This document shows, piece by piece, positions 1,046 through 36,832 of a stretch of 64,000 nt of DNA. Position numbers and translations under genes: made by a program. The notes under the pieces were generated by a model that searched no databases, was not told the DNA's origin, and saw only the letters and a list, made by a program, of their open reading frames with translations. The first letter of the stretch is position 1. Every line of letters starts with the position of its first letter. This DNA comes from Chloroflexota bacterium (GTDB lineage: Bacteria; Chloroflexota; Anaerolineae; Promineifilales; Promineifilaceae): NCBI GenBank assembly GCA_013112725.1, contig JABFFZ010000002.1:1-64000 (forward strand), in the 5' to 3' direction.

Positions 1046-1675
1046 TTGGCAGACCTGAGTATTGAAACGGCCGTCCTCCTCCAACATGGCCCGCTGCACA
1101 TCGCTGGCATTGACGAAGCCGGTCGGGGGGCATTGGCCGGCCCCGTCGTCGCCGCCGCCGTCATCTTGCCGCTCGATAATCCCAATGCGCTGGCGCAACT
1201 GGTTGAAGTCAACGACTCCAAACAACTCACCCCCCAGTCCCGTGAACGTCTCTTCTCACGCATCACGCATCACGCATCATCCTACGCTATCGCTCTGGAA
1301 TCCGCCGAAATCATTGACGAAATCGGCATTTTACCGGCAACCAAACGGGCGATGGTCACGGCCGTGACCCAACTCCCCCTGCCCGCCCAACACCTGCTCA
1401 TTGACGGCAACATCCGCCTGCCCACCGTCAACCTGCCCCAACAAGCCATCATTCGCGGTGACACGCTCAGTCTGAGCATTGCCGCCGCCGCCATCCTGGC
1501 CAAAGTCACCCGTGACCGGCTGATGGTGGAACTGGACGCCGCCTATCCTGCCTACGGTTTTGCCCGGCACAAGGGGTATGGCACGGCCGTACACCTGCAC
1601 GCCCTGGCCCAACACGGCCCCTGCCCCCATCACCGCTACACCTTCGCCCCCATCCGCCCCACGCTAATCCCCTGA
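1046..1675 (+). CDS. rnhB: Ribonuclease HII
   Basis: A 209-residue RNase HII, which removes ribonucleotides and RNA primers from DNA-RNA hybrids. The signature GIDEAGRGALAGPVVAAAV supplies the first catalytic Asp and Glu. NDSKQLT and LLIDGN follow in the usual order, with a further acidic residue in MVELDAAYP, and HKGYGTAVH near the C-terminus is typical. Translation appears to begin at a TTG (1046), because no ATG lies in frame before the fold; the exact start is uncertain. Bases 1253-1278 are a run of the word ATCACGC read as part of a surface segment (RITHHASS), one of several places where border-type words occur inside coding sequence. Confidence 0.92.
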   Translation: MADLSIETAVLLQHGPLHIAGIDEAGRGALAGPVVAAAVILPLDNPNALAQLVEVNDSKQLTPQSRERLFSRITHHASSYAIALESAEIIDEIGILPATKRAMVTAVTQLPLPAQHLLIDGNIRLPTVNLPQQAIIRGDTLSLSIAAAAILAKVTRDRLMVELDAAYPAYGFARHKGYGTAVHLHALAQHGPCPHHRYTFAPIRPTLIP

Positions 1676-33156: not shown

Positions 33157-33186
33157 ATGCTGCTGTGCGTTTTAGGATTGATTACT

Positions 33187-35004
33187 ATGATAAAACTAAC
33201 TTCCAACCAACAGGCCATGCTCGATGGTGAACGCGGTGTGGCCGTGCAAATGGCGATGCGCCTGCTGCTGGATATGGCCGCCGCCGCTAACGCCACTGAA
33301 CTGATCCCCATTCAGAGCGCCCACCTCTCCGGCGTTTCGCCGCTGACGGGCGGGCTGGGACTGCGCCAATTCCTGGCCAAACTGGCCCAAGACCCGCAAG
33401 CCAAAGTAGCCGTGCCCACCACCCTCAACGCCGCTGGCTGTGACGAAAACCAGTTTGACGCTATGCGCATCACCGCCCCCCATTTTCGGGAACACAACCA
33501 GGAAATTGTGGCGGCCTATACCCGGCTGGGTGTGCGCCCCACCCAATCCTGCATCCCCTATGAATGGGATGGGGTGGTCGTCAGCGGGCCGGCGGCCTGG
33601 GCCGAATCCAACGCTATCTGTTTCGGCAACTCCTACACCGGGCTGCTCACCAACCGGGAATCGGGCCTGTCGGCGCTGGCCTGCGCCCTGACGGGCTGCA
33701 CCCCCCGCTACGGCCTGCTGGATGAAGACGCCCGCCGCCCCAACCTGGAAGTCATCGTCGCCACACCCTTGAGCGACCCCACTGACTTTTCCATTCTGGG
33801 AGATTGGATTGGCAAACAGCGCACACCGGCCTGGAAAACGCCCTACGGCCCTATCCCCCTCATCAAAGGGCTGCCCGCCGAACTAAACCACGAACAAAAA
33901 AAGGCGCTGACGGCCGCCGCCGCCAACTATGGCAGCCCGTTACTCTATCTGGACGGGCATGGCCCCATCCCAGACGGGGATTTTCAGGCGCAACTGGTTT
34001 TTGGCGAGGTGGAATTGGTGGAACGGTATGAAAAGTTACGGCCGTCCCAATCCCCCTCCCTCATCGCCATTGGCTGCCCACAAGCGTCTGTTGGGGAACT
34101 GCGGGCGGTGGCCGAACTGCTGAAAGGACGGCATTTGCCGGCCGGTGCGCCGCCGCTGTGGGTCTTCACCTCCTCGGCCAACAAAGCCATTGCCCAAAAA
34201 CTGGGCCTGACCGACATCATTACCAACGCCGGGGCGCTGCTGCTGGAAAATACCTGCCCGGAAGTGGTACCCTACGATCCCGCCTGGGTGCAATCCGTCC
34301 TCACCAACTCCATGAAAGCGGAGCATTACATCAAGTCCGGGCTAAATGGCGTGCCGACAGCCGTGATGCGCCTGGCAGACTGCGTGGCTGTAGCCTTAGG
34401 GGAACTAGAGATTGGGAGATTGCCAACCAGAGGTTGGGGAGATTGGGAGATTGATGATCACCCCCTCACCTCATCACCCCGCACTATCCCCAGCGCCCAC
34501 TCCATCACCCCCTCACCTGCTCACCACTCACCGCTCACTGCTCACCGCTCACTGCCCACCGGCCCCTTCACCGCCACCGGTCACGGCTTGCCCTCCCAGC
34601 AAGCCTTCACCGTCACCGGCCAGGCGTTTGTGACGGACACGCCGATTACGTTGTTGGGTTTTGTGAACCGGGAGACGGGGGTGATTGAAGAGGAAGGGCA
34701 TCCGGCCAACGGCCGTAGCCTGGCCCACAAGATCGCCATCTTCCCCAAAGGCAGCGGCTCCACCGTCGCCCCCTACGTGTTGCTGGAATTGTTTTACCGG
34801 GGCAATGCCCCCCTGGCCATCGTCAACACCGAAATTGACCAGCAAAGCGCGCCCGCCTGTTCGCTGGAAGGCATCCCCTACGCCTACAGCTTCGACGCCG
34901 ACCTGATCGCCCACATCAACGACGGCGATACCGTTGAACTCAGCCGCCAGGGAGAGTACGTCACCATTCGCGTCCTGGCCCGCCGCGAGATAAAACGTTT
35001 GTAG
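33187..35004 (+). CDS. Aconitase X catalytic domain fused to its swivel domain
   Basis: A 605-residue AcnX hydro-lyase. Residues 1-407 are the catalytic part (DUF521) with LTSNQQAMLDGERGVAVQMA, AHLSGV, GCDENQF, SCIPYEWDG, the AWAESNAICFGNSYTGLLTN segment and LENTCPEV, including cysteines expected for the Fe-S or metal site. Residues about 461-605 are the swivel domain (DUF126) with GFVNRETGVIEEEGHP, FPKGSGSTVAPYVLLEL and NTEIDQQS. Between them, about residues 408-460 are translated from a border-type repeat (34408-34567) that is also found noncoding at 36676-36832. Archaea encode the two parts as separate genes. Candidate reactions are phosphomevalonate dehydration or cis-3-hydroxy-L-proline dehydration. 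ATG 33187 starts at the fold; ATG 33157 is possible. Confidence 0.88.
   Translation: MIKLTSNQQAMLDGERGVAVQMAMRLLLDMAAAANATELIPIQSAHLSGVSPLTGGLGLRQFLAKLAQDPQAKVAVPTTLNAAGCDENQFDAMRITAPHFREHNQEIVAAYTRLGVRPTQSCIPYEWDGVVVSGPAAWAESNAICFGNSYTGLLTNRESGLSALACALTGCTPRYGLLDEDARRPNLEVIVATPLSDPTDFSILGDWIGKQRTPAWKTPYGPIPLIKGLPAELNHEQKKALTAAAANYGSPLLYLDGHGPIPDGDFQAQLVFGEVELVERYEKLRPSQSPSLIAIGCPQASVGELRAVAELLKGRHLPAGAPPLWVFTSSANKAIAQKLGLTDIITNAGALLLENTCPEVVPYDPAWVQSVLTNSMKAEHYIKSGLNGVPTAVMRLADCVAVALGELEIGRLPTRGWGDWEIDDHPLTSSPRTIPSAHSITPSPAHHSPLTAHRSLPTGPFTATGHGLPSQQAFTVTGQAFVTDTPITLLGFVNRETGVIEEEGHPANGRSLAHKIAIFPKGSGSTVAPYVLLELFYRGNAPLAIVNTEIDQQSAPACSLEGIPYAYSFDADLIAHINDGDTVELSRQGEYVTIRVLARREIKRL
34408..34567 (+). 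repeat. Border-type repeat read as protein linker, copy 1
   Basis: GAGATTGGGAGATTGCCAAC opens a block of GGGAGATTG words followed by CCCCTCACC and CTCACCGCTCACTGC words. It is closely similar, inverted, to 36676-36832, including the GGTTGGGGAGATTGGGAGAT stretch, TGATCACCCCCTCAC and the CCCACCGGCCCCTTCACC end. The frame stays open throughout and it joins the two aconitase X domains. Confidence 0.85.
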
Positions 35005-35050
35005 TAGGCGATTTATCGCCTGCAAAGGGCGATAAATCGCCTACTACAAA
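34998..35050. terminator. 23-bp perfect hairpin at the end of the aconitase X gene
   Basis: TTTGTAGTAGGCGATTTATC and three more bases (34998-35020) are exactly inverted at 35028-35050, with a seven-base loop. The TAG stop is inside the left arm. It lies 26 bases before the antiporter start. A terminator or mRNA-stability role is likely, although the T-run is short. Confidence 0.7.
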
Positions 35051-35076
35051 CGGCAAACCTGTTACAAGGATACACA

Positions 35077-36303: not shown

Positions 36304-36681
36304 ATGCACTATATGATTCTGCTCGTTCTCAATAATCTGGATGACTGCCCACCCGTCCTGGATGCCTGGGAAGCATTGGGTGTTGGCGGCATCACCATCC
36401 TGGAAAGCACCGGCCTGGGGAAGGCCCGCAAATCCGGCATCCGCGAAAACGTCCCTACTATGCCCTCACTGGTTGACTTCTTCCGCCGTTCCGAAGAACG
36501 CCACCGTACCATTTTCACCGTCGTTGACAGCGAGGAAATGGCGGACAAACTCCTGGAAATCACCGAACAAACCCTGGGCAACCTGGAAGATGCTGACAAT
36601 GGCGTCTTGTTTGTGCTGCCGGTTTCCAAAGCCAGAGGTATTCACGGCGGCCAAAAACGGGCGCAGGAGCGGCGGGGGTGA
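36304..36681 (+). CDS. PII-like signalling protein paired with the antiporter
   Basis: A 125-residue ferredoxin-like protein of the PII superfamily: start MHYMILLVLNNLDD, then VLDAWEALGVGGITILESTG (the PII beta-alpha-beta turn), a T-loop-length variable segment (GKARKSGIRENVPTMPSLVD), and FTVVDSEEMADKLLEITEQT with GVLFVLPVSKARGIHG. It lacks the uridylylated tyrosine context of GlnB. PII-like proteins often trimerise, bind adenine nucleotides and gate a co-encoded transporter; that role is inferred from its seven-base spacing after the antiporter. ATG 36304 is used; a TTG two codons earlier is possible. Confidence 0.8.
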   Translation: MHYMILLVLNNLDDCPPVLDAWEALGVGGITILESTGLGKARKSGIRENVPTMPSLVDFFRRSEERHRTIFTVVDSEEMADKLLEITEQTLGNLEDADNGVLFVLPVSKARGIHGGQKRAQERRG

Positions 36682-36832
36682 TGGGGTGAGCAGGTGAAGG
36701 GGCCGGTGGGCAGTGAGCGGTGAGTGGTGGGCAGTGAGCGGTGAGTGGTGAGCAGTGAGGGGGTGAGGGGGTGATCACCAATCTCCCAATCTCCCCAACC
36801 TCCGGTTGGCAATCTCCCAATCTCCCGATTAC
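36676..36832 (-). repeat. Border-type repeat, noncoding copy 2
   Basis: Starting at the stop of the PII-like gene, GTGAGCAGTGAGCGGTGAGT-like words run into GGGGGTGATCACC, and then inverted GGGAGATTG words with CCTCCGGTTGGC. Read on the minus strand this matches the linker of the aconitase X gene (34408-34567). Here it separates convergent genes. Confidence 0.85.

What the first reader, a model, noticed from the sequence alone, without database searches (positions are those of the whole stretch)
33187..35004. Aconitase X and its swivel subunit appear joined by a translated intergenic repeat
The catalytic part ends near residue 407, where archaeal large subunits end, and the swivel part resumes near residue 461. 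The 53 residues between them come from a border-type repeat (34408-34567) that is also present, inverted and noncoding, at 36676-36832. The simplest reading is that two adjacent genes were fused by a border repeat that happened to stay open, or that such a repeat inserted in an existing linker. Direct evidence of gene fusion through an intergenic repeat is rare.
Basis: partly seen in the sequence, partly recalled or inferred. Interest (0 to 1): 0.85.

Follow-up and report, generated by a model that had tools for sequence, protein, structure and literature searches.

The report
Enzyme linker rewritten by spacer repeats
Two halves of an old fused enzyme are joined by a floppy linker whose DNA has been overwritten, again and again in different bacterial species, by short tandem repeats normally found between genes; the repeat did not create the fusion.

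Summary
ORF 33187-35004 is aconitase X with catalytic domains first and swivel domain last, and the stretch between them is a repeat block (34408-34572) that, gaps aside, is nearly identical to an inverted noncoding block at 36676-36832.

The favoured reading, fusion by a border repeat, is not supported. The fused form is older than the repeat: 31 of 32 family genomes that hold the gene have it as one ORF (one is broken between contigs), 38 of 40 named Chloroflexota loci too (two run off contigs), and so do three marine archaea with repeat-free linkers. The window's block is shared by four of six genus members, the noncoding copy by two.

The second reading, a repeat in an existing linker, holds and generalises. 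Of 42 linkers, 16 carry 7- or 8-bp tandem arrays of differing units, against 0 of 407 equal windows in the same genes' domains. CarA and MutS loops show the same. AlphaFold leaves only the linker disordered.

A paralogue (AcnX-2) did fuse once, in genus g4; whether a repeat took part is open.

The parts
33187..35004 (+). fused aconitase X (AcnX-1): large subunit (domains 1-3), linker, swivel subunit (domain 4)
   Evidence: Pfam; ORF; AlphaFold2 pTM 0.85; Foldseek to 7d2r/7cnr
33187..34398 (+). catalytic large-subunit part, about residues 1-404
34408..34572 (+). repeat block translated as the interdomain linker
   Evidence: disordered residues 412-453 (34420-34545)
34408..34453 (+). GAGATTGGGAGATTG module, two copies around CCAACC..GGTTGG
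   Evidence: (D10)
34517..34552 (+). heptamer array (TCACNGC units)
   Evidence: (D6)
34570..35001 (+). swivel (small-subunit) part; strands from about residue 462
36676..36832 (-). noncoding inverted copy of the linker block, between two genes
34996..35052 (.). perfect 25-nt inverted repeat with 7-nt loop overlapping the acnX stop codon; probably not part of the linker story
   Evidence: I8

Best explanation
The gene is an old large-small fusion of aconitase X. The join is a disordered tether that only needs to be long enough and open, so its DNA behaves like a gene spacer: the 7- and 8-bp tandem repeats that populate this clade's intergenic DNA have entered or been copied into it repeatedly and independently, different units in different species, and only in-frame, stop-free versions survive. 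In the window's genus one composite block is present in four members and not in G001 and G005, and a near-identical inverted block lies in a spacer 2.1 kb away, so block copying (gene conversion or duplication) between linker and spacer took place. Shown: age of the fusion, predicted disorder, recurrence, frame, shared block. Inferred: the copying mechanism (slippage plus conversion), its direction, and the tether role.
For: Fused as one ORF in 31 of 32 family genomes with the gene, 38 of 40 Chloroflexota loci and 3 of 3 archaeal loci of the genome-contig scan; fused AcnX-1 and the archaea form one side of a branch, 100/100. Arrays in 16 of 42 linkers, 0 of 407 domain windows, 0 of 42 linkers at control periods 5, 6, 9, 10, 11, 13; at least 6 changes of array presence among 30 rows. 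Block in G000, G003, G002, G004, not in G001, G005. Linker pN/pS 0.61-0.83 in 5 of 7 pairs, domains 0.10-0.17. Window linker and noncoding copy differ by 2 mismatches outside gaps; the G000/G003 linker has 6 differences in about 162 sites while domain synonymous divergence is 0.22, so the linker DNA is younger or homogenised. Own-genome match: 22 of the 24 best non-self places of the G029 linker lie in G029. Tandem periods 7 and 8 stand out in 864 kb of the window's genome, 8.6 and 9.1 times denser outside genes. CarA and MutS loops likewise. pLDDT under 50 at 412-453 only.
Against: 26 of 42 linkers have no array at the threshold, so arrays are not needed. The G023 linker repeat has no other match in its own genome at E 1e-6. 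Two of seven pairs do not show relaxed pN/pS (G002/G004 0.29; G000/G003 not computable). Repeat decay could hide older arrays, so the order of events rests on parsimony. RNase HII has a heptamer with no length change, which looks like chance resemblance, not insertion.
Confidence: 0.85

Rival explanations
1. The two genes were joined when a border repeat overwrote the stop codon of the large-subunit gene and stayed open, in the ancestor of the fused clade, and the repeat has since decayed or been replaced.
For: Linkers keep a spacer-like length and content; in the paralogue AcnX-2 the large subunit ends 1-3 residues after a conserved Trp in most split relatives, and in G002 a heptamer array starts right there and supplies the stop; fused AcnX-2 linkers of G028, G070, G068 and G065 begin with a GGGCAGGG(A/G)AGCAGGGG-like run at that spot.
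Against: Fused AcnX-1 of archaea has no array in its linkers, the class-level split genes are not its sisters, G001 and G005 are fused without the block.
Confidence: 0.1
2. The linker is selected as a low-complexity proline/serine/threonine-rich tether, and its likeness to genome repeats is convergence on simple sequence.
For: Length is held near 43-52 codons in most species; many linkers without arrays are rich in P, S, T, A, K.
Against: Same composite block of several modules in the noncoding spacer, above 7-mer block shuffles; own-genome match of units; periods 7 and 8, not multiples of 3, are favoured.
Confidence: 0.07
3. The linker block is the donor and the spacer copy the recipient: coding DNA seeded this intergenic copy. 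(A sub-question of the best explanation, not exclusive of it.)
For: The linker block occurs in four genus members, the spacer copy in two of them.
Against: The unit families are widespread in the genome, and G002/G004 spacers hold other repeats, so the copy may have been lost there. The spacer copy of G000 shares the G003 linker letter at both mismatches, which gives no direction.
Confidence: 0.3

Closest known systems
[quoted passage not shown] A. tumefaciens 7cnp/7d2r)
   Same: Same two domains in one chain; 31-32% identity over the aligned part.
   Different: Type I is 4-linker-1-2-3 with a short linker at residues 150-156 (PMC8184944, passages seen); here 1-2-3-linker-4 with a linker of about 50 residues.
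Aconitase X type IIb, phosphomevalonate dehydratase (T. kodakarensis 7cnr)
   Same: Catalytic and small subunits fold alike (TMt 0.91 and 0.87-0.89); Cys at site 1 and site B, none at site C by the alignment; HMG-CoA reductase present in 7 of 7 genomes.
   Different: Subunits are separate genes in type II (PMC10040528, passages seen). Kanno et al. 2024, cited in PMC13001223 on the archaeal mevalonate pathway in Ca. Promineifilum breve, is not held, so whether it notes the fusion is unknown to me.
Mitochondrial-type aconitase / AcnA (1-2-3-linker-4)
   Same: Same domain order (PMC8184944, passage seen).
   Different: Other subfamily; 10-14% identity by Foldseek.
Heptameric tandem repeats of Xanthomonas and Nostoc (GGGNATC)
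   Same: 7-bp units, spread over the genome, enriched between genes (PMC4692102, passages seen).
   Different: Units here are many and differ from GGGNATC; here they also sit in frame inside conserved enzymes.
Rickettsia palindromic elements
   Same: Intergenic repeats found in frame inside unrelated proteins (PMC10969869, passage seen).
   Different: RPEs are palindromic elements of about 150 bp with a conserved peptide; here tandem units, no inverted repeat of 12 nt or more within the block, and units differ between species at one site.

Membership tests
Aconitase X family | AcnX catalytic domain and AcnX swivel domain above Pfam cut-offs | tested here: met
   313.7 and 70.6 bits, cut-offs 31.5 and 27
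AcnX type I | single chain in the order swivel - linker - catalytic | tested here: not met
   catalytic first, swivel last; NCBIfam equivalog NF051439 232 bits, cut-off 700
AcnX type II | large and small subunits encoded by separate genes | tested here: not met
   one open ORF, no stop through the linker
Phosphomevalonate dehydratase (type IIb) | Cys at sites 1 and B, none at site C | tested here: met
   query CPQAS aligns with position 449 and TCPE with C508; the position of C510 is E (site names from PMC10040528); C297 and C357 invariant in 32 rows
Phosphomevalonate dehydratase (type IIb) | dehydration of mevalonate 5-phosphate | not testable with these tools
   needs an enzyme assay
Heptameric intergenic repeats | 7-bp tandem units enriched outside genes | tested here: met
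   29.6 against 3.46 arrays per 100 kb; 8-bp units too; 0 arrays of period 7 or 8 in 400 kb of class-level genome G048
Rickettsia palindromic elements | palindromic element with a conserved encoded peptide | tested here: not met
   no inverted repeat of 12 nt or more in 34380-34600; units differ between species
Gene fusion through an intergenic repeat | split orthologues with the repeat in the spacer, fused only with the repeat | tested here: not met
   fused orthologues without the block and repeat-free fused archaea

The most novel reading that the evidence does not exclude
In this family (Promineifilum and relatives) 7- and 8-bp tandem repeats are copied between spacers and protein linkers as if both were spacer DNA, giving core enzymes such as AcnX, CarA and MutS species-specific peptide loops, and adjacent genes can fuse when such a repeat overwrites a stop codon, as the single AcnX-2 fusion in genus g4 may record.
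Probability: 0.25. Interest if true: 0.85.

Novelty: new variant of a known kind. Interest (0 to 1): 0.6.

Why it matters
Here loops of conserved metabolic and DNA-repair enzymes are rewritten with different spacer repeats in each species while frame and flanking domains stay intact. That gives a natural series for asking how repeats spread, how linkers tolerate near-random peptide, and whether spacer repeats help genes fuse; AcnX-2 in genus g4, with split relatives at hand, is a direct test case. My searches found no report of this in Chloroflexota, in an open-access library only.

Tried and rejected
Fusion by the border repeat in this gene: rejected on the age of the fusion. Spacer copy as donor: not shown, it is found in fewer relatives.

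RNase HII (window 1046-1675) as a second in-window example: not an insertion, all 12 genomes compared have the same length there. The 514-aa ORF with an array at residue 45 may only have a wrong start, so I count 10 to 12 genes of 613, not more.

Orientation test: 14 of 16 interior arrays are stop-free in sense and 3 of 16 in antisense, but genes are called because they are open, so this is partly circular and I do not lean on it.

Own-genome origin of every linker: failed for G023, held for G029 and the window's genome; three linkers tested of 42. Class-level 'same open frame' lengths suggested more fusions; one search shows them split (11 of 20 loci hold both parts, 0 fused; 9 of 20 have no small part in the locus).

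First extraction of orthologues ignored strand and gave nonsense for 16 of 30 rows, redone.

Full report
What is there. The ORF at 33187-35004 (an upstream ATG at 33157 is possible) encodes aconitase X as one chain: catalytic large-subunit part first, swivel small-subunit part last. The fold is supported by AlphaFold2 on an alignment of 32 sequences (pTM 0.85, mean pLDDT 86.8; only residues 412-453 form a segment below 50) and by Foldseek, where the best solved matches are A. tumefaciens aconitase X and both subunits of T. kodakarensis aconitase X. The stretch between the parts, 34408-34572, is a composite of an octamer-type module (GAGATTGGGAGATTG), a CACCCCCTCAC module and a heptamer array (TCACNGC). 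The same composite lies inverted and noncoding at 36676-36832; the two align with 2 mismatches apart from length changes of 39, 1 and 7 nt, far above shuffles of 7-mer blocks.

The fusion is old. Among 35 genomes of the same family (the window's own included), 32 have a close match; 31 of these are one ORF (one of them, G031, is cut by a contig end beyond the linker) and one (G020) is broken between two contigs. A scan of named genomes gave 43 loci: 40 Chloroflexota, of which 38 are open from the catalytic part through the linker into the swivel part and 2 end at contig ends, and 3 marine archaea (Marine Group III, Poseidoniales, one record titled euryarchaeote), all open through the linker. 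On a tree of 83 catalytic parts the Chloroflexota fused genes and the archaeal ones are one side of a branch, support 100/100. The branch is long and the tool warns that long branches meet, so the deeper placement is unsure; the grouping of fused with fused also rests on 50% identity of the archaeal genes to AcnX-1 against 29-33% to AcnX-2. Other families of the class have large and small genes that are separate: of 20 loci inspected (one of them from the own family), 11 hold both parts and none is fused, 9 have no small part nearby.

The repeat is younger. Within the genus the block is in the linkers of G000, G003, G002 and G004; G001 and G005 are fused without it, though G001 carries another array of TCACNGC type. 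The noncoding copy is found only in G000 and G003; the corresponding spacers of G002 and G004 hold other repeats and that of G001 is short. Between G000 and G003 the linker shows 0 synonymous and 6 nonsynonymous differences in about 162 sites, while synonymous divergence of the flanking domains is 0.22. A stretch with no visible protein constraint should have diverged more, so the linker DNA was recently copied, exchanged or homogenised; this is inference.

It recurs. Of 42 AcnX-1 linkers 16 carry an array of period 7 or 8 at the threshold, against 0 of 407 windows of equal length in the domains of the same genes and 0 of 42 linkers for periods 5, 6, 9, 10, 11 and 13. The units differ between species, even between near relatives: G029 has TCACCCCY units, its sister G009 CAATTGG. 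Presence needs at least 6 changes on the tree of 30 rows. Linker pN/pS is 0.61-0.83 in five of seven pairs, 0.29 in one and undefined in one; domains give 0.10-0.17. Length stays near 43-52 codons in most species. Units can belong to the species' own genome: 42 other places for the window's linker (lower bound) and 22 of the 24 best non-self places for that of G029; but G023's repeat has no second copy in its genome at the cut-off.

It is not confined to AcnX. In 864 kb of the window's genome tandem arrays have periods 7 and 8 (and multiples) almost only; they are 8.6 and 9.1 times denser outside called genes (crude gene caller). Sixteen arrays lie inside 12 of 613 called genes. In CarA, the loop before the glutaminase domain, and in MutS, a loop before the lever region, carry different heptamers in different relatives, always in frame (9 genomes for CarA, 10 for MutS); solved relatives show a CarA loop of similar length, so it is rewritten rather than added, while MutS has extra residues (names of the regions recalled). 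In G002 and G004 an AAA ATPase of the RarA type with a C-terminal domain carries the same peptide EIGRLPTGSWGDWEIG (family name from recall). Samples from G028, G012 and G001 show period-7 and -8 arrays too, fewer in G028 and G012, and 400 kb of a class-level genome (G048) none. In the 200 kb of G012, chosen because it holds AcnX, both interior arrays sit in the AcnX linker.

It is split in most genera and fused only in genus g4 (one change on the tree, 26 rows; fused clade 100/99 within split ones). Fused linkers in six genomes are 96-165 nt, all multiples of three and open, with further fused linkers in G065 and G069. Three of those six and 3 of 20 split spacers carry arrays. In G002 the array begins where the large subunit normally ends and supplies its stop. 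In the fused genus the arrays are clear in G028, G070 and G068, partial in G065, and absent at the threshold in G008, G066 and G067, so whether a repeat made the join or came later is undecided.

What it does. The most likely function is a phosphomevalonate dehydratase: the archaeal sister group, Cys at sites 1 and B but not C and HMG-CoA reductase in 7 of 7 genomes point that way; no activity is shown here. The linker most likely works as a flexible tether that keeps the swivel part next to the active site. The passages I saw of PMC8184944 and PMC10040528 list 4-linker-1-2-3 and separate subunits for aconitase X, not 1-2-3-linker-4; Kanno et al. 2024 on Promineifilum was not held, so I do not claim that the architecture is unpublished.

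Papers: PMC8184944, PMC5144071, PMC10040528, PMC4692102, PMC6749651, PMC10969869, PMC13001223 and PMC11052028 were seen as passages found by terms; others only in listings; Kanno et al. 2024 only as a reference-list entry.

Noticed in passing
34996-35052: Perfect 25-nt inverted repeat with a 7-nt loop covers the last codons and stop of acnX; also in G003 at 90%. Terminator-like or an interspersed palindrome.
   Followed up: no
window 1046-1675: RNase HII carries a perfect three-unit heptamer TCACGCA in its coding sequence without any length change against 11 relatives.
   Followed up: yes
L045 730-3003, L046 640-2907: AAA ATPase (RarA-like) with a C-terminal domain has the same in-frame linker peptide EIGRLPTGSWGDWEIG type as the window's AcnX.
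   Followed up: partly
L090 17230-19413: ABC transporter ORF has long in-frame heptamer arrays (EQLAVSS repeats) at the start of its ATPase domain.
   Followed up: no
L051 2818-5139: Second aconitase X of the window's genome is split, with an unrelated 149-aa ORF between large and small genes; similar 617-635 nt spacers in G001 and G004.
   Followed up: partly
L047 2071-4098: In G028 this paralogue is fused with a linker of GGGGAGCAGGGGGGCAG repeats.
   Followed up: yes
L032 and G012:C21: The G012 AcnX linker holds two different heptamer arrays (GGCAAGG and TCCGAAA) although this genome sample is otherwise nearly free of arrays.
   Followed up: partly
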